Below are positions 21,442-31,025 of a stretch of 64,000 bases of DNA, piece by piece. The stretch comes from Streptomyces mayonensis (lineage in GTDB: Bacteria; Actinomycetota; Actinomycetes; Streptomycetales; Streptomycetaceae), in the NCBI RefSeq assembly GCF_018982965.1, contig NZ_JACBYP010000024.1:1-64000 (forward strand). Direction: 5' to 3'. The notes below the pieces were generated by a model. That model was not told the origin of the DNA. It ran no database searches and saw only the letters and a list, made by a program, of their open reading frames with translations. The position numbers and the translations under genes were made by a program. Within the stretch, counting starts at the first letter, position 1; every line of letters begins with the position of its first letter.

Positions 21442-22035
21442 TCACCAGTCGGCGGAGGGGCCCGTCAGTTCGCGGACGGCCGGCCGGGCGGCGTCCAGCA
21501 CCGTCATGAACCAGGCCGAGAAGGCGTCCTGCGCATGCCGTTCGGCCAGTTCGGCCGGGGAGACGAAGGCCGCCTCGGCCACCTCCTCCGGATCCGGGCG
21601 CAGTTCGGCCTGGACGAGGCCGACGAACAAATGGTTGTACTCCTGCTCGACCAGCCCGGAGTCCGGGTCGGGGTGGTTGTAGCGCACCGTGCCCGCCTCG
21701 GCGAGCAGCGACGGCGAGACGCCCAGCTCCTCGTACGTCCGCCGGGCCGCCGCCGCGAACGGTGCCTCGCCGGGGTAGGGATGACCGCAGCAGGTGTTGG
21801 ACCACACGCCGGGGGAGTGGTACTTGCCCAGCGCCCGCTGCTGGATCAGCAGCCGCCCCCGCTCGTCGAAGAGGAACACCGAGAACGCGCGGTGCAGCTG
21901 CCCCGGTGGCTGGTGCGCGGAGAGCTTCTCCGCGGTGCCGATCGTCACGCCGTTCTCGTCGACCAGTTCCAGCAAAATCGCGTCTGCGGTGCCGTTCGAC
22001 GAACTGTGCGTCGCGGTGGCAGGAGTGATCGGCAT
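21442..22035 (-). CDS. idi: Isopentenyl-diphosphate delta-isomerase, type 1
   Basis: Interconverts IPP and DMAPP, supplying isoprenoid building blocks. It is 197 aa and nearly identical by eye to S. coelicolor Idi as I remember it. The Nudix-fold active site is clear: Cys in WSNTCCGHP, the metal-binding His residues, the Nudix-like RRTYEELG helix and the second metal Glu in VEQEYNHLFVG. I chose the ATG at 22035 because GAAGG lies 6 nt upstream; the ATG at 22041 would abut that site. It lies 9 kb from the hopanoid cluster, which has dxs and ispG, so it likely balances the prenyl pool feeding that pathway. Confidence 0.96.
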   Translation of the reverse strand: MPITPATATHSSSNGTADAILLELVDENGVTIGTAEKLSAHQPPGQLHRAFSVFLFDERGRLLIQQRALGKYHSPGVWSNTCCGHPYPGEAPFAAAARRTYEELGVSPSLLAEAGTVRYNHPDPDSGLVEQEYNHLFVGLVQAELRPDPEEVAEAAFVSPAELAERHAQDAFSAWFMTVLDAARPAVRELTGPSADW

Positions 22036-22457
22036 ACCCATCCTTCACATCGGTCCTCGCGCCCCAAGTGTGCCGTACCGGTCCGGCACTCCCGGCACTT
22101 CCCGGCACGCCCGCATGTCCCGTGTGCCCGCAGGGGCGGCCGGACGTGACCGGTCGGACACCGAGGAAGGGCTCCGAAGGGTGAGCGTGCCCGGCGCCGC
22201 CGTCCGGGAACCGTCCGGCACACGGCCGGGGTGAAAGCCGGGGGAGGCCGGTGGTGAACGGACGGCGGACCGCAGCACCCGACGGCGCACCCCGGCGCCC
22301 GCGCGCCCCAGGCGCCCGCGACGTTCCGTCCCTGCGCCGGGCGACGTCCCGTCCCTGCGCCCGCGACGCCTCCGCCCCTGAGCCCTCGCTCAGCCCCTTG
22401 CCCTCACGCCCCCCTCTCGCCCCCTCGCTCAGCCGCTCAGCCGCCCCGCGCCCCCGC
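22036..22457. other. Gene-free region upstream of idi
   Basis: A 422-bp stretch that is C-rich on the plus strand, with many short direct repeats around CCGTCCCTGCGCC and CCCTCGCTCAGCC (22325-22440). No conserved ORF on either strand. It should hold the idi promoter and the 3-prime end of the metal transporter transcript; I see no convincing hairpin. Confidence 0.5.
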
Positions 22458-23875: not shown

Positions 23876-25702
23876 TTGCCGACCGCCATCCTCACCGGTC
23901 AGCCGGTCCCCGGTTCGTCGATCGAGGGCGAACTGCGGTCCCTGGGTTTCGACGTACGCCCCGCAACCGGTACCGCCGACACCGAGACCCTGCTGGCCCG
24001 GGTCCCGGCCGCGGACCGGGTCGCCGTGGTCGACGCCCGCCTCGTCGGCCACCGGCACGCCCTGCGCCTCGGACTCACCGACCCGCGCTTCCCGCTCGCC
24101 GCCATCCCGGGCGCCGTCACCGCCCAGCCGGCGGCCCGCCGGGAGCTGACCCGCGCGATGGCCCGGGAGAACTCCGCGGGGGGCGGCACCGCCCTCGACG
24201 TCGACAGCCTCGCCGACCGGATCGCCGCCGCCCTCGACGCCGACGGCGCCGCCGTGCACCGCCCCGAGCTCGGCACCCTCGTCGCCGCCGTCCCCACCGA
24301 CCCGCAGGCCCGCAACGAGGCACGGCAGGCCGTCGCCGCCGTCGACGACGAGGCCGTGCGCCTGAAGTCGGCGGTCAAGGCCCGCGACGGCTTCGTGACG
24401 ACCTTCTTCATCAGCCCCTACTCCCGCTACCTCGCCCGCTGGTGCGCGGGGCGCGGCCTGACGCCCAACCAGGTCACCACCGCCTCGCTCGCCACCGCGC
24501 TCGTGGCGGCGGGCTGCGCGGCCACCGGCACCCGGGCCGGTTTCGTCGCCGCCGGAGTCCTGCTCGTCGGCTCCTTCGTGCTCGACTGCGCCGACGGACA
24601 GCTCGCCCGCTACTCCCTGCAGTACTCCACGCTCGGCGCCTGGCTCGACGCCACCTTCGACCGGGCCAAGGAGTACGCCTACTACGCGGGACTCGCCGTG
24701 GGTGCCGCCCGCGGCGGCGACGACGTGTGGGCACTGGCCCTGGGCGCGATGATCCTCCAGGCCTGCCGGCACGTCGTCGACTTCTCCTTCAACGAGGCGA
24801 ACCTCGACAGCGAGGCCGTCGCCATAGGAACCAGCCCCACCGCGGCCCTCTCCCACCGGCTCGACACCGTCGGCTGGACCGTCTGGCTGCGCCGCATCAT
24901 CGTCCTGCCGATCGGCGAGCGGTGGGCCATAATCGCCGTCCTCACGGCGGTCGCCACCCCCCGGATCACCTTCTGCGCACTGCTGATCGCCTGCGCCTTC
25001 GCCGCCGTCTACACCACCGCGGGCCGCGTCCTGCGCTCGCTGACCCGCCGGGCCACCCGGACCGGCCGCGCGGCGAAGGCGCTCGCCGACCTCGCCGACT
25101 CCGGCCCGCTCGCCGAGGCCGCCGCCCAGCGGCTCGGGACGACCGCGCGCCGGCTGCCCGGCCTCGCCGCCCCCGGCCTCGCCCTGCTCGGCGGCGGTGC
25201 CGTCGTCGCGGCGGCGGCGCTCACCGACTTCGGCAGCCCCTGGCCCGTGGCCGGCGCGCTCGTGTACGCCGCGGCGTCCGCCCTCGCCGTCGCCCGGCCC
25301 CTCACGGGCGCCCTCGACTGGCTGGTGCCGCCCTTCTTCCGCGCCGCCGAGTACGGCACGGTCCTGGCACTGGCGGCCACATCCGACGTGAACGGGGCGC
25401 TTCCGGCGGCTTTCGGGCTGGTGGCCGCGGTCGCCTACCATCACTACGACACGGTCTACCGCATCCGCGGCGGCGCGGGGGCGCCGCCGCGGTGGCTGGT
25501 CCGGACGGTCGGGGGGCACGAGGGCCGCACGCTGGTGATCACCGTGCTCGCCGTGCTGCTCACCGCCCCGCAGTTCAAGGTCGCGCTCACGGCTTGTGCC
25601 GTGGCCGTGGCACTCGTGGTGCTCGTGGAGAGCATCCGCTTCTGGGTCGCCGCCCACCAGGTCGGCGCACCCGCCGTACACGACGAAGGAGAACCCGCAT
25701 GA
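23876..25702 (+). CDS. CDP-alcohol phosphotransferase, three-part membrane protein (DUF5941 C-terminus)
   Basis: A 608-aa protein heading a seven-gene cluster. Residues 1-170 form a soluble domain I do not recognise firmly. Residues about 178-360 form a CDP-alcohol phosphotransferase domain with the complete motif D237-xx-D240-G-xx-A-R245-x8-G254-xxx-D258-xxx-D262, expected to move a phospho-alcohol from CDP to an acceptor. The C-terminal 200 residues are further membrane segments resembling DUF5941. The start is a TTG at 23876 with AGGAAG about 9 nt upstream; no better in-frame start exists. The stop overlaps the next ATG by 4 bp (ATGA), so they are translationally coupled. Donor and acceptor are unknown. 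Confidence 0.85.
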   Translation: MPTAILTGQPVPGSSIEGELRSLGFDVRPATGTADTETLLARVPAADRVAVVDARLVGHRHALRLGLTDPRFPLAAIPGAVTAQPAARRELTRAMARENSAGGGTALDVDSLADRIAAALDADGAAVHRPELGTLVAAVPTDPQARNEARQAVAAVDDEAVRLKSAVKARDGFVTTFFISPYSRYLARWCAGRGLTPNQVTTASLATALVAAGCAATGTRAGFVAAGVLLVGSFVLDCADGQLARYSLQYSTLGAWLDATFDRAKEYAYYAGLAVGAARGGDDVWALALGAMILQACRHVVDFSFNEANLDSEAVAIGTSPTAALSHRLDTVGWTVWLRRIIVLPIGERWAIIAVLTAVATPRITFCALLIACAFAAVYTTAGRVLRSLTRRATRTGRAAKALADLADSGPLAEAAAQRLGTTARRLPGLAAPGLALLGGGAVVAAAALTDFGSPWPVAGALVYAAASALAVARPLTGALDWLVPPFFRAAEYGTVLALAATSDVNGALPAAFGLVAAVAYHHYDTVYRIRGGAGAPPRWLVRTVGGHEGRTLVITVLAVLLTAPQFKVALTACAVAVALVVLVESIRFWVAAHQVGAPAVHDEGEPA

Positions 25703-26451
25703 TCGGCCTCGTGCTGGCGGCCGGCGCCGGCCGGCGTCTGCGTCCCTACACCGACACCCTGCCCAAGGCACTGGTGCCGGTCGGCCCCGAGGGGGCGGAG
25801 GACAGCATCACGGTCCTCGACCTGACCCTGGCGAACTTCGCCGAGGTCGGCCTGACCGAGGTCGGGATCATCGTCGGCTACCGCAAGGAGGCCGTGTACG
25901 AGCGCAAGGAGGCGCTGGAGCAGAAGTACGGCGTCAAGCTCACCCTGATCGACAACGACAAGGCCGAGGAGTGGAACAACGCCTACTCCCTGTGGTGCGG
26001 CCGCGGCGCTCTCGAGGACGGCGTGATCCTCGCCAACGGCGACACCGTGCACCCGGTCTCCGTCGAGAAGACCCTGCTCGCCGCCCGCGGCGACGGCAAG
26101 AAGATCATCCTCGCCCTCGACACGGTGAAGAACCTCGCCGACGAGGAGATGAAGGTCGTCGCCGCCCCCGACAAGGGTGTGCAGCGCATCACCAAGCTGA
26201 TGGACCCGGCCGAGGCCACCGGCGAGTACATCGGCGTCACCCTCATCGAGGGCGAGGCCGCCGCCGACCTGGCCGACGCGCTGAAGGCCACCTTCGAGCG
26301 CGACCCGCAGCTGTACTACGAGGACGGCTACCAGGAGCTCGTCAACCGCGGCTTCAAGGTCGACGTCGCCCCGATCGGCGACGTCAAGTGGGTCGAGATC
26401 GACAACCACGACGACCTCGCCAAGGGCAGGGAGATCGCGTGCCTGTACTGA
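25699..26451 (+). CDS. LicC-like sugar/alcohol-phosphate nucleotidyltransferase
   Basis: A 250-aa NTP transferase. The N-terminus has the nucleotide-binding LAAGAGRRLRPYTDTLPKAL signature. NNAYSLW and the ending VEIDNHDDLAKGREI are typical of the phosphocholine-cytidylyltransferase (LicC) subgroup rather than of hexose-1-phosphate transferases. With two CDP-alcohol transferases and a glycerol-1-phosphate-dehydrogenase-like gene adjacent, it probably makes a CDP-alcohol, perhaps CDP-glycerol, from CTP; this is inference. ATGA coupling with the gene before and a 13-bp overlap with the gene after indicate an operon. Confidence 0.85.
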   Translation: MIGLVLAAGAGRRLRPYTDTLPKALVPVGPEGAEDSITVLDLTLANFAEVGLTEVGIIVGYRKEAVYERKEALEQKYGVKLTLIDNDKAEEWNNAYSLWCGRGALEDGVILANGDTVHPVSVEKTLLAARGDGKKIILALDTVKNLADEEMKVVAAPDKGVQRITKLMDPAEATGEYIGVTLIEGEAAADLADALKATFERDPQLYYEDGYQELVNRGFKVDVAPIGDVKWVEIDNHDDLAKGREIACLY

Positions 26452-27500
26452 CGAGGCTCATTCCGTCGCCGGTCGTCGTGGACATCCGCGCGGGTGCCCT
26501 CGACGACCTGGGGGACGTGCTCGCCGACGAGCGCATCTCCCACTCGGGCAAGCTCGCCGTGGCCGTCAGCGGCGGCTCCGGTGCCCGGCTGCGCGAGCGC
26601 GTCGCCCCGTCCCTGCCCGGCGCCGACTGGTTCGAGGTCGGCGGCGGCACCCTGGACGACGCGATCAAGCTGGCCGGTGCCATGAAGGGCGGCCACTACG
26701 ACGCGGTCGTCGGTCTCGGCGGCGGCAAGATCATCGACTGCGCCAAGTTCGCCGCGGCACGCGTCGGACTGCCACTGGTCGCCGTGCCCACCAACCTGGC
26801 GCACGACGGTCTGTGCTCGCCGGTCGCCACCCTCGACAACGACGCGGGCCGCGGCTCCTACGGCGTACCGAACCCGATCGCCGTCGTGATCGACCTGGAC
26901 GTCATCCGCGCCGCCCCGGCCCGCTTCGTGCGCGCCGGCATCGGCGACGCCGTCTCCAACGTCTCCGCGATCGCGGACTGGGAGCTGGCCAACCGGGTCA
27001 AGGGCGAGCGCATCGACGGCCTGGCCGCCGCGATGGCCCGCCAGGCCGGCGAGGCCGTGCTCCGCCACCCCGGCGGCATCGGCGACAACGAGTTCCTCCA
27101 GGTGCTGGCCGAGGCGCTGGTCCTCAGCGGCATCGCCATGTCGGTCTCCGGCGACTCGCGGCCGTCCTCGGGCGCCTGCCACGAGATCAACCACGCCTTC
27201 GACCTCCTCTTCCCCGAGCGCGCGGCCGCCCACGGCGAGCAGTGCGGGATGGGCGCGGCCTTCGCGATGTACCTGCGCGGGGCCCACGAGGAGTCCGTCC
27301 ACATGGCCGAGGTGCTGCGCCGGCACGGTCTCCCGGTCCTGCCGGAGGAGATCGGATTCACGCCCGGGGAGTTCGTCCGGGCCGTGGAGTTCGCCCCGCA
27401 GACCCGCCCGGGCCGCTACACGATCCTCGAGCACCTCGACCTGAAAACCAACCAGATCAAGGACCTGTACGCCGACTATGTCAAGGCCATCGGTAGCTGA
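26439..27500 (+). CDS. sn-Glycerol-1-phosphate dehydrogenase-like (iron-containing alcohol dehydrogenase family)
   Basis: A 353-aa NAD(P)-dependent, metal-dependent dehydrogenase of the EgsA/AraM type. Visible are the nucleotide-binding GLGGGKIIDCAKFAA, the PTNLAHDGLCSPVA segment typical of glycerol-1-phosphate dehydrogenases, and metal ligands in SSGACHEINHAF and AAHGEQCG plus an upstream Asp. The family reduces DHAP to sn-glycerol-1-phosphate, the archaeal-handed glycerol phosphate; other polyol phosphates are possible. The start is the GTG at 26439, 13 bp inside the previous gene. It also overlaps the next gene by 23 bp. No phosphonate genes (PEP mutase) are nearby, so a phosphonoacetaldehyde-reductase role is unlikely. 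Confidence 0.82.
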   Translation: MPVLTRLIPSPVVVDIRAGALDDLGDVLADERISHSGKLAVAVSGGSGARLRERVAPSLPGADWFEVGGGTLDDAIKLAGAMKGGHYDAVVGLGGGKIIDCAKFAAARVGLPLVAVPTNLAHDGLCSPVATLDNDAGRGSYGVPNPIAVVIDLDVIRAAPARFVRAGIGDAVSNVSAIADWELANRVKGERIDGLAAAMARQAGEAVLRHPGGIGDNEFLQVLAEALVLSGIAMSVSGDSRPSSGACHEINHAFDLLFPERAAAHGEQCGMGAAFAMYLRGAHEESVHMAEVLRRHGLPVLPEEIGFTPGEFVRAVEFAPQTRPGRYTILEHLDLKTNQIKDLYADYVKAIGS

Positions 27501-28257
27501 ACTACGCCCGGTCGTCCATCCCGCGGGAGTCAAGGACCGGCGCAGCGGTGAGCACTGGGCGGGACGCCTCTACATGCGTGAGGTCTCGCTGCGGATCGAC
27601 CGCTACCTGGTGAACACCAGGATCACCCCCAACCAGCTCACGTACCTGATGACCGTCTGCGGCGTCCTGGCCGCCCCGGCACTGCTCGTGCCGGGCATAC
27701 CGGGCGCCGTGCTCGGCGTCGTCGCGGTCCAGCTCTACCTGCTGCTGGACTGCGTCGACGGGGAGATCGCCCGCTGGAAGAAGCAGTACTCGCTCGGCGG
27801 CGTCTACCTGGACCGGGTCGGCGCCTACCTCACCGACGCCGCCGTCCTGGTCGGCCTCGGCCTGCGCGCCGCCGACCTCTGGGGCACCGGCCGCATCGAC
27901 TGGCTGTGGGCCTTCCTCGGCACCCTGGCCGCGCTCGGCGCCATCCTCATCAAGGCCGAGACCGACCTGGTGGGCGTCGCCCGGCACCAGGCCGGCATGG
28001 AGCCGGTCAAGGAGGCCGCCTCCGAGATCCGCTCCTCCGGCATGGCACTGGCCCGCCGGGCCGCCGGGGCGCTCAAGTTCCACCGGCTGATCCTCGGCAT
28101 CGAGGCGTCCCTGCTGATCCTCGTCCTCGCCATCGTCGACCAGGCGCGCGGCGACCTGTTCTTCACCCGCCTCGGCACCGCCGTACTCGCCGGCATCGCG
28201 CTGCTGCAGACGCTGCTGCACCTGGTGTCCGTCCTCGCCTCCAGCAGGCTGAAGTGA
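27478..28257 (+). CDS. Second CDP-alcohol phosphotransferase family protein, atypical active site
   Basis: A 259-aa membrane protein with about six hydrophobic segments. It has most of the CDP-alcohol phosphotransferase signature: D91-xx-D94-G-xx-A-R99-x8-G108-xxx-D112. The eighth position, normally the fourth Asp proposed as catalytic base, is Ala116; the next acidic residue is Asp120. It may therefore use another base, or bind substrate without turnover. The PNQLTY segment before the motif is normal for the family. It overlaps the dehydrogenase gene by 23 bp and the glycosyltransferase gene by 4 bp (GTGA). Probably partners the larger transferase or acts on its product. Confidence 0.85.
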   Translation: MSRPSVAELRPVVHPAGVKDRRSGEHWAGRLYMREVSLRIDRYLVNTRITPNQLTYLMTVCGVLAAPALLVPGIPGAVLGVVAVQLYLLLDCVDGEIARWKKQYSLGGVYLDRVGAYLTDAAVLVGLGLRAADLWGTGRIDWLWAFLGTLAALGAILIKAETDLVGVARHQAGMEPVKEAASEIRSSGMALARRAAGALKFHRLILGIEASLLILVLAIVDQARGDLFFTRLGTAVLAGIALLQTLLHLVSVLASSRLK

Positions 28258-29138
28258 GCGGGGCCATGAAGGTCGGCGCGGTCGTCATCACGATGGGCAA
28301 CCGTCCCGAGGAACTGCGTGCCCTGCTCGACTCGGTCGCCAAGCAGGACGGCGACCCGGTCCAGGTGGTCGTGGTCGGCAACGGCGCGCCCGTCCCGGAG
28401 GTCCCGGACGGCGTGCGCACCGTCGAACTGCCCGAGAACCTGGGCATCCCCGGCGGCCGCAACGTCGGCATCGAGGCCTTCGGCCCGGACGGACGGGACG
28501 TCGACGTCCTGCTCTTCCTCGACGACGACGGCCTCCTCGCCCGCACCGACACGGCCGAGCTGTGCCGGGAGGCGTTCGCGGCCGACGACGAGCTGGGCAT
28601 CATCAGCTTCCGCATCGCCGACCCGGACACCGGCGAGACCCAGCGCCGGCACGTGCCGCGGCTGCGCGCGTCCGACCCGATGCGCTCCTCCCGGGTCACC
28701 ACCTTCCTCGGCGGCGCCAACGCCGTACGCACCCGCGTCCTCGCCCAGGTCGGCGGGCTGCCGGACGCCTTCTTCTACGCCCACGAGGAGACCGACCTCG
28801 CCTGGCGGGCCCTCGACGGGGGCTGGATGATCGACTACCGGTCGGACATGGTGCTCAACCACCCCACGACCGCCCCCTCCCGGCACGCCGTCTACCACCG
28901 CATGGTCGCCCGCAACCGCGTCTGGCTCGCCCGCCGCAACCTCCCCGCGCTCCTGATCCCGGTCTACCTCGGCGTCTGGATGCTGCTGACCCTGCTGCGC
29001 CGCCCCTCGCGGCCTGCGCTGAAGGCCTGGTTCGGCGGTTTCCGCGAGGGCTGGTCGACCCCGTGCGGCCCCCGCCGGCCCATGAGGTGGCGTACGGTGT
29101 GGCGGCTGACCCGGCTGGGCCGGCCCCCGGTGATCTGA
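28254..29138 (+). CDS. Family 2 glycosyltransferase
   Basis: A cytoplasmic-face GT-A glycosyltransferase of about 294 aa. The N-terminus VGAVVITMGNRPEELRALL begins the Rossmann half. LPENLGIPGGRNVG is the nucleotide-sugar loop, LLFLDDDGLL holds the metal-binding DxD, and YAHEETDLAWRAL carries the acceptor-side ED motif. The C-terminus has a hydrophobic stretch (LIPVYLGVWMLLTLL) that may anchor it. The GTG at 28254 gives a GTGA overlap with the upstream stop and has AGCAGG 5 nt ahead; ATG at 28266 is the alternative. It presumably adds a sugar to the lipid or polymer made by its neighbours. Confidence 0.87.
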   Translation: MSGAMKVGAVVITMGNRPEELRALLDSVAKQDGDPVQVVVVGNGAPVPEVPDGVRTVELPENLGIPGGRNVGIEAFGPDGRDVDVLLFLDDDGLLARTDTAELCREAFAADDELGIISFRIADPDTGETQRRHVPRLRASDPMRSSRVTTFLGGANAVRTRVLAQVGGLPDAFFYAHEETDLAWRALDGGWMIDYRSDMVLNHPTTAPSRHAVYHRMVARNRVWLARRNLPALLIPVYLGVWMLLTLLRRPSRPALKAWFGGFREGWSTPCGPRRPMRWRTVWRLTRLGRPPVI

Positions 29139-29236
29139 CAAGCTCGTACCCGAGAGCGTTCCGGCCCCGTCCGGGGCGACAGGTCCGTGCCGGGCCCGCG
29201 CGGCCGGGCATTTTTCGAAGACGAAAGTTTCCACCA

Positions 29237-30166
29237 GTGAGTGAGACAACGCACGACGGCACGGTCGCCATGACCAAGCCCGTGGCGCCCGACGAGGGCC
29301 TCACCCCGGCTCAGCTCGCCGCCCGGCACGGGCTGTCCGTGAGCGGTGCCCGACCGTCCCTCGTGGAGTACGTCCGTCAGCTCTGGGGGCGGCGGCACTT
29401 CATCCTGGCCTTCTCCCAGGCGAAGCTGACCGCCCAGTACAGCCAGGCCAAGCTCGGCCAGCTGTGGCAGGTGGCCACGCCGCTGCTGAACGCGCTCGTC
29501 TACTTCCTGATCTTCGGCCTGATCCTCAACGCGGGCCGCGGCATGCCGAAGGACGTCTACATCCCGTTCCTGGTGACGGGGGTGTTCGTCTTCACCTTCA
29601 CCCAGTCCTCGGCGATGGCCGGCGTGCGTGCCATCTCCGGCAACCTCGGCCTGGTGCGGGCGCTGCATTTCCCGCGCGCCTCGCTGCCGGTGTCGTTCGC
29701 GCTGCAGCAGCTCCAGCAGCTGCTGGCCTCGATGATCGTGCTGTTCGCGGTGGTCATCGGTTTCGGCAGCTACCCCGCGCTGTCCTGGCTGCTGGTCGTG
29801 CCGGTGCTCGTCCTGCAGTTCCTCTTCAACGTGGGCCTCGCGCTGGTCGTGGCCCGGATGGGCGCCAAGACGCCGGACCTGGCCCAGCTGATGCCGTTCA
29901 TCATGCGGACCTGGATGTACGCGTCGGGCGTGATGTTCTCCATCCCGATCATGCTGGAGGACAAGCCGGCCTGGCTGGCCGACGTGCTGCAGTGGAACCC
30001 GACCGCCGTCTACATGGACCTGATGCGCTTCGCGCTGATCGACGGGTACGGCTCCGGGAACCTGCCGCCGCACGTGTGGGCGGTCGCGCTCGGCTGGGCC
30101 GTGGCCCTCGCCGTGGGCGGCTTCGTGTACTTCTGGAAGGCTGAGGAGAGGTACGGCCGTGGCTGA
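29237..30166 (+). CDS. ABC-2 type polysaccharide/teichoic-acid export permease
   Basis: A 309-aa integral membrane protein with six predicted segments after a 55-residue cytoplasmic tail, the TagG/Wzm layout. LWGRRHFILAFSQAKLTAQY contains the amphipathic coupling helix typical of O-antigen and teichoic-acid exporters, followed by KLGQLWQVATPLLNALVYFLI in the first segment. The GTG at 29237 is the first good start. A 98-bp gap separates it from the glycosyltransferase, the largest inside the cluster, so a second promoter is possible. It overlaps its ATPase gene by 8 bp. Likely exports an undecaprenyl- or lipid-linked glycan. Confidence 0.9.
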   Translation: MSETTHDGTVAMTKPVAPDEGLTPAQLAARHGLSVSGARPSLVEYVRQLWGRRHFILAFSQAKLTAQYSQAKLGQLWQVATPLLNALVYFLIFGLILNAGRGMPKDVYIPFLVTGVFVFTFTQSSAMAGVRAISGNLGLVRALHFPRASLPVSFALQQLQQLLASMIVLFAVVIGFGSYPALSWLLVVPVLVLQFLFNVGLALVVARMGAKTPDLAQLMPFIMRTWMYASGVMFSIPIMLEDKPAWLADVLQWNPTAVYMDLMRFALIDGYGSGNLPPHVWAVALGWAVALAVGGFVYFWKAEERYGRG

Positions 30167-30944
30167 GCAGCAGGACGAGCGGGTGCCGACGGTCATCGCG
30201 GACGAACTGCACATCGTCTACCGCGTCAACGGCGCCAAGACCGGCCGGGGCAGCGCGACCGCCGCCCTGAGCCGCATGCTCAGACGGGGCTCCGACGACG
30301 CGGCGCGGGGCGTGCGCAAGGTGCACGCCGTGCGCGGCGTCTCCTTCACCGCCTGGCGGGGCGAGGCCATCGGCCTGATCGGCTCCAACGGCTCCGGCAA
30401 GTCCACCCTGCTGCGGGCCATCGCCGGTCTGCTGCCCGCCGAGCGAGGCAAGGTCTACACCGACGGCCAGCCCTCCCTGCTCGGCGTCAACGCGGCCCTG
30501 ATGAACGACCTGACCGGCGAGCGGAACGTGATCCTCGGCGGTCTGGCCATGGGCATGACCCGTGAGCAGATCAAGGAGCGCTACCAGGACATCGTCGACT
30601 TCTCGGGCATCAACGAGAAGGGCGACTTCATCACCCTGCCGATGCGCACGTACTCCTCCGGCATGGCCGCCCGGCTGCGGTTCTCCATCGCGGCAGCCAA
30701 GGACCACGACGTCCTCATGATCGACGAGGCGCTGGCCACCGGCGACCGGAAGTTCCAGACCCGCTCGGAGGAACGCATCCGGGAGTTGAAGAAGGAGGCC
30801 GGCACGGTCTTCCTGGTCAGTCACAACAACAAGTCCATCCGCGACACCTGCAACCGCGTCCTGTGGCTGGAACGCGGCGAACTGCGCATGGACGGCCCGA
30901 CCGACGAGGTCCTCAAGGAGTACGAGAAGTTCACGGGCAAGTAG
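30159..30944 (+). CDS. ABC transporter ATP-binding protein, polysaccharide export (TagH/Wzt-like)
   Basis: A 261-aa ATPase that powers the adjacent permease. It carries Walker A GSNGSGKST, the unusual export-type signature YSSGMAARLRFSIA, Walker B VLMIDEALATGD and the switch His in LVSHNNKSI. A 45-residue N-terminal extension precedes the usual start. It lacks the C-terminal carbohydrate-binding domain of some Wzt proteins, so recognition of a capped O-antigen end is unlikely; the substrate is probably recognised by the permease. The GTG at 30159 overlaps the permease end by 8 bp. A terminator follows 10 bp after the stop, closing the cluster. Confidence 0.92.
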   Translation: MAEQQDERVPTVIADELHIVYRVNGAKTGRGSATAALSRMLRRGSDDAARGVRKVHAVRGVSFTAWRGEAIGLIGSNGSGKSTLLRAIAGLLPAERGKVYTDGQPSLLGVNAALMNDLTGERNVILGGLAMGMTREQIKERYQDIVDFSGINEKGDFITLPMRTYSSGMAARLRFSIAAAKDHDVLMIDEALATGDRKFQTRSEERIRELKKEAGTVFLVSHNNKSIRDTCNRVLWLERGELRMDGPTDEVLKEYEKFTGK

Positions 30945-30954
30945 CCCGACACGC

Positions 30955-30989
30955 CGGGCCCTCGCCGCAACTGTTCCGGCGAGGGCCCG
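30955..30989 (+). terminator. Terminator closing the polyol-phosphate cluster
   Basis: A 13-bp perfect GC-rich stem (30955-30967 with 30977-30989) with a 9-nt loop lies directly after the ATPase stop codon. Confidence 0.85.
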
Positions 30990-31025
30990 CGTCTGCAAAG
31001 GAAACGTCAACTCCTGGCGTTCCCA

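What the first reader, a model, noticed from the sequence alone, without database searches (positions are those of the whole stretch)
23876..30944. Uncharacterised polyol-phosphate envelope cluster with an archaeal-type glycerol-1-phosphate dehydrogenase
Seven genes with 4-23 bp overlaps combine a LicC-like nucleotidyltransferase, an EgsA/AraM-like dehydrogenase, two CDP-alcohol phosphotransferases, a GT2 enzyme and a TagGH-type exporter. The set suggests DHAP to sn-glycerol-1-phosphate (or another polyol phosphate), to a CDP-alcohol, to a lipid or glycan acceptor, then glycosylation and export. I know of no described bacterial product made this way. The cluster is ended by a strong terminator directly before the hopanoid genes.
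Basis: partly seen in the sequence, partly recalled or inferred. Interest (0 to 1): 0.8.

Follow-up and report, generated by a model that had tools for sequence, protein, structure and literature searches.

The report
Archaeal-type glycerol-phosphate envelope gene cluster
A Streptomyces gene cluster whose core recurs in about a quarter of the actinomycete genomes sampled probably activates the mirror-image (archaeal) form of glycerol phosphate and uses it to build an exported cell-envelope molecule; the product is unknown and the chemistry is untested.

Summary
The cluster is real: seven same-strand genes with five overlapping junctions and one 98-bp gap, kept in order beside the hopanoid genes in 71 of 71 Streptomyces loci. 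C is EgsA/AraM-like, B a LicC/PntC-type cytidylyltransferase, A and D CDP-alcohol phosphotransferases, F/G a TagGH-type exporter. Of 60 genomes with C, 57 encode TagF-family proteins, none has a TagD match of 70 bits or more, none PcrB over cut-off. F/G have 69%/82% identical paralogues beside a TagF-domain gene. CAP1+DUF5941 models like eukaryotic cholinephosphotransferase. CAP2 lacks the fourth motif Asp in 110 of 110 homologues. Best reading: DHAP to G1P to CDP-sn-1-glycerol, transferred to a lipid acceptor, glycosylated, exported. The synteny is already in print (PMC13118837). CDP-1-glycerol is known in vitro and from Archaeoglobus but was held likely absent in bacteria (PMC8262930). All chemistry here is inferred.

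The parts
23876..25702 (+). A (CAP1): nucleotidyltransferase-like N-terminal domain (about 1-132) + CDP-alcohol phosphotransferase with the full DxxDGxxAR(x8)GxxxDxxxD motif + DUF5941; CAP+DUF5941 modelled like eukaryotic CHPT1/CEPT1
   Evidence: Pfam PF01066 + PF19365; motif; model pLDDT 75.1; VIA-align 8ul9 Z 21.0, 8ero Z 20.6
25699..26451 (+). B: LicC/PntC-type nucleotidyltransferase, proposed CTP:sn-glycerol-1-phosphate cytidylyltransferase
   Evidence: Pfam NTP_transferase; PDB LicC 1jyk 6e-12, also 4jd0, 6pd1
26439..27500 (+). C: EgsA/AraM-like sn-glycerol-1-phosphate dehydrogenase
   Evidence: NF002022 247 bits, below its 413-bit cut-off; PDB 4rgq 2.8e-43; D170, H248, H265 invariant in ten sequences
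27478..28257 (+). D (CAP2): CDP-alcohol phosphotransferase variant whose fourth motif Asp is Ala here (His in most homologues outside Streptomyces)
   Evidence: Pfam PF01066; 110 of 110 homologues lack the fourth Asp; alignment to AF2299; model pLDDT 82.5
28254..29138 (+). E: GT2 glycosyltransferase (weak matches to MftF and GlfT1 models)
29139..29236 (.). 98-bp gap; the exporter pair could be expressed separately
   Evidence: gap present in 81 of 81 Streptomyces loci measured
29237..30166 (+). F: ABC-2 export permease (Wzm/TagG-like)
   Evidence: 69% identical paralogue next to a TagF-domain gene in the same genome
30159..30944 (+). G: exporter ATPase (TagH/Wzt-like)
   Evidence: TagH model 184.6 bits, cut-off 320; 82% identical paralogue next to a TagF-domain gene
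30953..30992 (+). strong G+C hairpin without T-run, possible transcription end

Best explanation
The cluster makes and exports an sn-glycerol-1-phosphate-based envelope glycoconjugate. Proposed steps: C reduces DHAP to sn-glycerol-1-phosphate (inferred from family); B activates it with CTP to CDP-sn-1-glycerol, the mirror image of the usual TagD product (inferred); CAP1, probably with CAP2, transfers the sn-1-glycerophosphate from this polar donor to a membrane-lipid acceptor in the manner of a class II (Kennedy-type) phosphotransferase (inferred from the modelled fold); E adds sugar; F/G export it as TagGH or Wzm-Wzt do. In most hosts TagF-family polymerases and LCP ligases, which lie outside the cluster in Streptomyces but often near the module in other families, may use the same donor to build a wall-teichoic-acid-like polymer, B-C standing in for the TagD not found there. 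Shown here: the genes, their conservation, the neighbourhoods, the co-occurrence and the TagF-linked exporter paralogues. Not shown: any reaction or product.
For: C has the G1PDH metal ligands in register with a solved G1PDH and scores 247 bits with the archaeal G1PDH model versus 87 with glycerol dehydrogenase. B is next to C in 36 of 37 fetched non-Streptomyces loci (37 of the 38 such genomes with C were fetched). Those loci carry LCP in 24 of 37, GDPD 17, UDP-sugar dehydrogenase 10, TagF-type 10, UDP-GlcNAc 2-epimerase 6, and an IspD-type gene in 21, five of them fused to a reductase domain (Pfam of representatives). Among 246 genomes TagF-family matches occur in 57 of 60 with C versus 56 of 186 without (Fisher p 2e-20); by genus 24 of 25 versus 29 of 78 (p 8e-8); TagD-model matches of 100 bits or more occur in 0 of 55 strong-TagF genomes with C and 10 of 29 without. 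This genome has six TagF-family matches, and its only match to the TagD model is 39 bits in a PfkB-CTP_transf_like (RfaE-type) gene. F/G paralogues, 69% and 82% identical, lie next to a TagF-domain gene. In one same-genus genome (G133) a second C copy lies about 6 kb from TagF genes. CAP1 models like CHPT1/CEPT1, which take a polar CDP donor and a lipid acceptor (PMC10156783). A TagF-like polymerase, Cps7D, made polymer from Gro1P (PMC8262930).
Against: No activity is shown. C misses the NCBIfam G1PDH cut-off. Three C-positive genomes have no TagF-family match (G098, G160 and the same-genus, 100%-complete G243), so TagF is not needed for whatever the cluster does. Seven same-genus genomes with C have 58-66-bit matches to the TagD model, others weaker ones; these could be divergent cytidylyltransferases. 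Nineteen strong-TagF genomes have neither C nor TagD at 100 bits or more. None of these counts is corrected for shared ancestry. TagD-type enzymes Cps3B and Cps7B accept both glycerol phosphates but appear to prefer Gro3P, and Cps3D could not build polymer from Gro1P alone (PMC8262930). IspD-type and GDPD neighbours may be housekeeping genes; IspD is the MEP-pathway enzyme. Nine of 37 outside loci had none of the eleven marker queries, and the second B-C pair in L129 has no TagF within its stretch. CAP1 is split and has lost its motif in one group of genomes.
Confidence: 0.48

Rival explanations
1. Lipid only: CAP1/CAP2 put glycerophosphate on diacylglycerol or a glycolipid, E glycosylates it and F/G export it; no polymer and no link to TagF. 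With diacylglycerol and CDP-sn-1-glycerol this would give phosphatidylglycerol-type stereochemistry by a Kennedy-type route.
For: CAP1+DUF5941 models like CHPT1/CEPT1; no TagF gene in the Streptomyces cluster; G243 has C and no TagF match; the PG head group is sn-1 (PMC7086022).
Against: LCP and TagF-type neighbours outside Streptomyces; TagF co-occurrence 57 of 60; exporter paralogues next to a TagF-domain gene.
Confidence: 0.2
2. The activated alcohol is not sn-glycerol-1-phosphate: C reduces another ketone or ketose phosphate and B activates that polyol phosphate; the rest is a teichoic-acid-like pathway for another polyol.
For: C is below the curated G1PDH cut-off; the B group covers phosphocholine, aminoethylphosphonate and inositol phosphate enzymes.
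Against: C scores far better with the G1PDH model than with glycerol dehydrogenase or other Fe-ADH models and aligns over about 247 residues with solved G1PDHs.
Confidence: 0.16
3. The acceptor is inositol phosphate, giving a glycerophosphoinositol as in Archaeoglobus (CDP-1-glycerol + inositol phosphate), which is then glycosylated and exported or serves as a solute.
For: The CAPs' closest sequence relatives are AF2299, IPCT-DIPPS and PIPS; archaeal glycerophosphoinositol synthesis is said to need CDP-1-Gro (PMC8262930).
Against: The exporter, GT2, LCP and TagF links fit an envelope product better; CAP1 matches class II enzymes best by fold.
Confidence: 0.09
4. The cluster serves the neighbouring hopanoid pathway (decorated or exported hopanoid).
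For: Next to hpnC in 71 of 71 Streptomyces loci.
Against: hpnC, hpnD, hpnE and SHC queries have no hit (E 1e-5) in the 37 non-Streptomyces loci; a hairpin and a gap of mostly about 330-360 bp separate the sets.
Confidence: 0.04
5. G1P made here feeds archaeal-type ether lipids through a PcrB/GGGP-synthase homologue, as with AraM in Bacillus.
For: C is EgsA/AraM-like.
Against: PcrB model over cut-off in 0 of 246 genomes; the 20 sub-threshold matches are all in genomes without C.
Confidence: 0.02

Closest known systems
Wall teichoic acid (Tag) pathway
   Same: CDP-glycerol-type donor, TagF-family proteins in the genome, TagGH-type exporter, LCP ligases in many related loci
   Different: No TagD found; a G1P dehydrogenase plus a LicC-type nucleotidyltransferase instead; two integral-membrane CDP-alcohol phosphotransferases with no counterpart I know in the Tag pathway (pathway from PMC7086022 passages, and recall)
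Archaeoglobus CDP-1-glycerol / glycerophosphoinositol route
   Same: G1P activated with CTP; CAP family including AF2299 and IPCT-DIPPS, the nearest solved relatives of both CAPs
   Different: Archaeal, with inositol phosphate as acceptor; known to me only from a passage in PMC8262930; no exporter or glycosyltransferase mentioned there
AraM/EgsA G1P dehydrogenases
   Same: Family and metal ligands
   Different: Linked to CDP activation and export; no PcrB over cut-off
Eukaryotic CHPT1/CEPT1 (class II CDP-alcohol phosphotransferases)
   Same: Modelled CAP + DUF5941 aligns over 302-313 residues
   Different: Bacterial, with an extra nucleotidyltransferase-like N-domain; identity 10-12%; DUF5941 shows no sequence-level match
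Cytidylyltransferase + CAP pair on a Sulfitobacter plasmid (H44)
   Same: B relative next to a CDP-alcohol phosphotransferase
   Different: Class V aminotransferase instead of a G1P dehydrogenase, no exporter; that it makes a phosphonolipid is my inference

Membership tests
EgsA/AraM sn-glycerol-1-phosphate dehydrogenase | Asp-His-His metal ligands; HDG and SRPxSGxxHxxxH motifs | tested here: met
   D170, H248, H265 invariant in A1 and aligned with 4rgq; HDG is NDG in two of the ten rows; ligand roles recalled
EgsA/AraM sn-glycerol-1-phosphate dehydrogenase | NCBIfam NF002022 curated cut-off (413 bits) | tested here: not met
   247 bits. Only 3 of 14 control genomes pass, though four of the controls with a match are archaea, so the cut-off may be narrow; I call C EgsA/AraM-like, not EgsA
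EgsA/AraM sn-glycerol-1-phosphate dehydrogenase | DHAP to G1P activity | not testable with these tools
   -
LicC/IPCT/PntC cytidylyltransferases | N-terminal GxGxRLxPxTxxxPK and C-terminal WxEIDxxxDL-type motifs | tested here: met
   alignments to 1jyk (N-terminal part only), 4jd0 and 6pd1; motif wording is mine; substrate not determined
CDP-alcohol phosphotransferases | DxxDGxxAR(x8)GxxxDxxxD in CAP1 | tested here: met
   90 of 100 A hits (one of them the Sulfitobacter CAP); of the other 10, eight are DUF5941-only or degenerate ORFs outside Streptomyces and two are Streptomyces fragments at contig ends
CDP-alcohol phosphotransferases | Same motif in CAP2 (D) | tested here: not met
   Fourth Asp is Ala in 83 and His in 27 of 110; the six other CAPs of this genome keep it. 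CAP2 is CAP-like
Class II (CHPT1/CEPT1-type) CDP-alcohol phosphotransferases | Ten-TM fold with a second, non-catalytic CAP-like unit | tested here: inconclusive
   Model match Z 19.4-21.0, but model pLDDT 75, and profile comparison of DUF5941 with the CAPs not significant
Wall teichoic acid (Tag) pathway | TagD CDP-glycerol synthase in the genome | tested here: not met
   only TIGR01518 match 39 bits (cut-off 165.4), in a PfkB-CTP_transf_like gene
Wall teichoic acid (Tag) pathway | TagF-family polymerase in the genome | tested here: met
   six matches over cut-off, none in the window cluster
Wall teichoic acid (Tag) pathway | TagGH exporter | tested here: inconclusive
   TagH model 184.6 bits versus cut-off 320; TagF-linked paralogues
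Wall teichoic acid (Tag) pathway | TagO/TagA linkage-unit enzymes, wall attachment | not tested
   LCP found near the module in 24 of 37 other loci; not searched in this genome
Archaeal-type ether lipid pathway (PcrB) | PcrB/GGGP synthase | tested here: not met
   0 of 246 over cut-off, this genome included

The most novel reading that the evidence does not exclude
Many actinomycetes use an archaeal-type route in place of TagD and build envelope glycerophosphate conjugates from CDP-sn-1-glycerol, a donor thought to be absent from bacteria, so that cytoplasmically made (wall-type) polymers or glycolipids carry the stereochemistry of archaeal lipids and lipoteichoic acid, with the transfer done by a bacterial enzyme (CAP + DUF5941) that has the architecture of eukaryotic cholinephosphotransferase.
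Probability: 0.35. Interest if true: 0.83.

Novelty: new variant of a known kind. Interest (0 to 1): 0.63.

Why it matters
Passages I read hold that CDP-glycerol and wall teichoic acid are sn-3 (PMC7086022; PMC8341164) and that CDP-1-glycerol is likely absent in bacteria, with free Gro1P absent in the vast majority (PMC8262930). A G1P dehydrogenase next to a cytidylyltransferase in a quarter of sampled actinomycete genomes makes that directly testable. If true, glycerophosphate stereochemistry in actinomycete envelopes must be measured rather than assumed, and bacterial G1P dehydrogenases outside Bacillus gain a function. A bacterial protein modelled with the fold of CHPT1/CEPT1 also bears on how those enzymes arose, a question raised in PMC10182977.

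Tried and rejected
Hopanoid link: not general, since hpnC, hpnD, hpnE and SHC queries hit none of the 37 non-Streptomyces loci. The 'SHC' query was in a wrong reading frame, so its counts there (69 of 71) are void and not used; one search repeats it in the right frame against the non-Streptomyces loci only. PcrB route: 0 of 246. DUF5941 as a degenerate CAP by sequence: hhalign probability under 1% against both CAP alignments and best PDB sequence match E 0.31, unrelated; only the model supports it. A T-run terminator-like site in the window's E-F gap (29194) is not conserved: 0 of 81 gaps in other loci contain TTTTT. Second copies: B-C (L129) and C alone (L130) lie between a long ORF that I took for rne by eye and rplU-rpmA-obgE-like ORFs; TagF genes are near in L130, not in L129. 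Nitratidesulfovibrio plasmid G1PDH-like gene (35%): no envelope genes around it.
Full report
What is there. Seven genes run on the + strand from 23876 to 30944: A, CDP-alcohol phosphotransferase with DUF5941 (608 aa); B, LicC-like nucleotidyltransferase (250 aa); C, Fe-ADH_2/G1P-dehydrogenase-like (353 aa); D, a second CDP-alcohol phosphotransferase (259 aa); E, GT2 (294 aa); F and G, an ABC-2 permease and its ATPase. Junctions are -4, -13, -23, -4, +98 and -8 bp. A hairpin of -34.1 kcal/mol without a T-run follows G; hpnC begins about 330 bp on. The genome is taken to be a Streptomyces because the best named matches to C are Streptomyces at up to 97%.

Conservation. In the class sample C is found in 60 of 246 genomes: 22 of the 22 same-genus genomes (this one included) and 38 others in eight further unnamed families. 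All 71 Streptomyces loci over 19 kb hold A-G in order before hpnC; 69 of these were drawn by similarity to C, so they are not an unbiased sample. I fetched 37 of the 38 other loci: B is next to C in 36, and CAP2 is found in 27. A named record, S. fungicidicus, shows the same block with NCBI product names.

Dehydrogenase and nucleotidyltransferase. C scores 247 bits with the NCBIfam G1P dehydrogenase model (cut-off 413, not reached) and 87 bits with glycerol dehydrogenase; it aligns with a solved G1PDH at 3e-43 with the Asp-His-His ligands in register, invariant in ten homologues. B's closest solved relatives are LicC, 4jd0 and the cytidylyltransferase-aminotransferase fusion 6pd1. Its substrate cannot be read from sequence. 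On a Sulfitobacter plasmid a B relative sits next to a class V aminotransferase and a CDP-alcohol phosphotransferase, the same general plan of activating a head group with CTP and transferring it with a CAP.

The two CAPs. CAP1 keeps all four motif aspartates in 90 of 100 hits; eight of the others are DUF5941-only or degenerate ORFs outside Streptomyces and two are fragments at contig ends. CAP2 lacks the fourth aspartate in 110 of 110 homologues: Ala in 83, His in 27, one of the latter in Streptomyces; the six other CAPs of this genome keep it. PMC10156783 (passages) describes the four aspartates as a di-metal site, so CAP2 is altered at its core, though the other motif residues are invariant in the 16 aligned. 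Modelled CAP1 (pLDDT 75.1, pTM 0.68) has a nucleotidyltransferase-like domain at about 1-132 (IspD rows, Z up to 7.9, a range where chance matches occur) and over 171-601 aligns with eukaryotic cholinephosphotransferases (8ul9 Z 21.0, rmsd 4.5, 313 residues; 8ero Z 20.6, rmsd 3.8, 307; 9uet Z 20.1; CEPT1 8gyw Z 19.4), ahead of AF2299 (Z 18.4) and PIPS. Class II enzymes of this kind take a polar CDP donor and a lipid acceptor (PMC10156783). This suggests, but does not show, that CAP1 moves glycerophosphate to a lipid. CAP2's model (pLDDT 82.5) is nearest AF2299 and IPCT-DIPPS. By sequence both CAPs are also nearest AF2299 and inositol-phosphate enzymes, and sequence comparison does not support a DUF5941-CAP relation.

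Neighbourhoods outside Streptomyces. Within the fetched stretches (up to 19.5 kb): a GT2 in 25 of 37, LCP 24, IspD-type 21 (five fused to an SDR domain along the whole query), GDPD 17, UDP-sugar dehydrogenase 10, TagF-type 10, UDP-GlcNAc 2-epimerase 6; nine loci had none of the eleven queries (Pfam of representatives). LCP, TagF-type and the sugar enzymes belong to wall-glycopolymer loci; IspD-type and GDPD genes could be housekeeping, and that the IspD-SDR fusions make CDP-ribitol is recalled, not tested. No hopanoid gene was found in the 37.

Co-occurrence. TagF-family (PF04464) matches: 113 of 246 genomes; 57 of 60 with C, 56 of 186 without (Fisher p 2e-20); by genus 24 of 25 versus 29 of 78 (p 8e-8). 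TagD-model matches of 70 bits or more: 0 of 60 with C. Among 84 genomes with strong TagF (E<1e-50), TagD at 100 bits or more is in 0 of 55 with C and 10 of 29 without (p 7e-6); 19 have neither. Against this, three C genomes lack TagF matches (G098, G160, G243), and seven same-genus genomes with C carry 58-66-bit matches to the TagD model. The counts are not corrected for ancestry. PcrB over cut-off: 0 of 246. This genome has six TagF-family matches, all within four stretches I took; the TagD model matches nowhere in them, its one match in the genome being a 39-bit one in a PfkB-CTP_transf_like gene. Other kinds of cytidylyltransferase near them were looked for only by eye. One stretch holds paralogues of F (69%) and G (82%) next to a 736-aa TagF-domain gene. 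In G133 a second C copy lies about 6 kb from two TagF genes; the second B-C pair of G163 has none in its stretch.

Mechanism proposed. DHAP -> sn-G1P (C) -> CDP-sn-1-glycerol (B) -> lipid-linked sn-1-glycerophosphate (CAP1, perhaps with CAP2) -> glycosylated (E) -> exported (F/G); where TagF and LCP proteins exist the same donor may be polymerised and wall-attached. Every reaction is inferred. In vitro support for the last step: the TagF-like polymerase Cps7D makes polymer from Gro1P, while Cps3D incorporates it only from a racemic mixture (PMC5974469; PMC8262930). Because G243 keeps C without a TagF match, I take the CAP step as the core and TagF use as optional.

What is known. PMC13118837 (one passage) reports what is evidently this synteny in Streptomyces and groups it with teichoic acid biosynthesis. 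PMC5059525 (passages) used a Streptomyces sequence in its G1PDH work. PMC7086022 and PMC8341164 (passages) state that CDP-glycerol and WTA are sn-3 and LTA sn-1. PMC8262930 (passages) reports that TagD-type enzymes Cps3B and Cps7B accept Gro1P in vitro, that an Archaeoglobus activity prefers Gro1P and serves glycerophosphoinositol synthesis, and calls CDP-1-Gro likely absent in bacteria. So CDP-1-glycerol itself is not new; a dedicated bacterial G1P-dehydrogenase-plus-cytidylyltransferase route is what I did not find. Searches; the six papers were read in passages. Only open-licence PMC papers are held, so this is no proof of absence. I rate it a new variant of a known kind, its synteny already known.

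Noticed in passing
L129:8802-10603; L130:9379-10506: Two same-genus genomes have a second B-C pair (L129) or a second C alone (L130) upstream of rplU-rpmA-obgE-like ORFs; in L130 TagF genes (one a GT2-TagF fusion by Pfam) lie about 6 kb away, in L129 none is within the stretch.
   Followed up: partly
L160:5400-9769 (own genome G000:C187): A 736-aa TagF-domain gene next to a TagGH-type pair that is a close paralogue of F/G (69% and 82% identity).
   Followed up: partly
window 27478-28257: CAP2 homologues lack the fourth Asp of the CDP-alcohol phosphotransferase motif in all 110 seen (Ala or His) and share an N-terminal EHW, invariant in the 16 aligned.
   Followed up: yes
L112:11273-12864 and L126:11075-12657: In one group of genomes CAP1 is split into two ORFs and its catalytic motif is degraded, as if it had become a structural partner.
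   Followed up: partly
L157 (S. fungicidicus plasmid p1, 927 kb): The whole cluster and the hopanoid genes are recorded on a replicon called a plasmid.
   Followed up: no
window 21442-22041: NUDIX-domain ORF in the position of the isopentenyl-diphosphate isomerase annotated in S. fungicidicus, upstream of the cluster with a cation-efflux-like gene between.
   Followed up: partly
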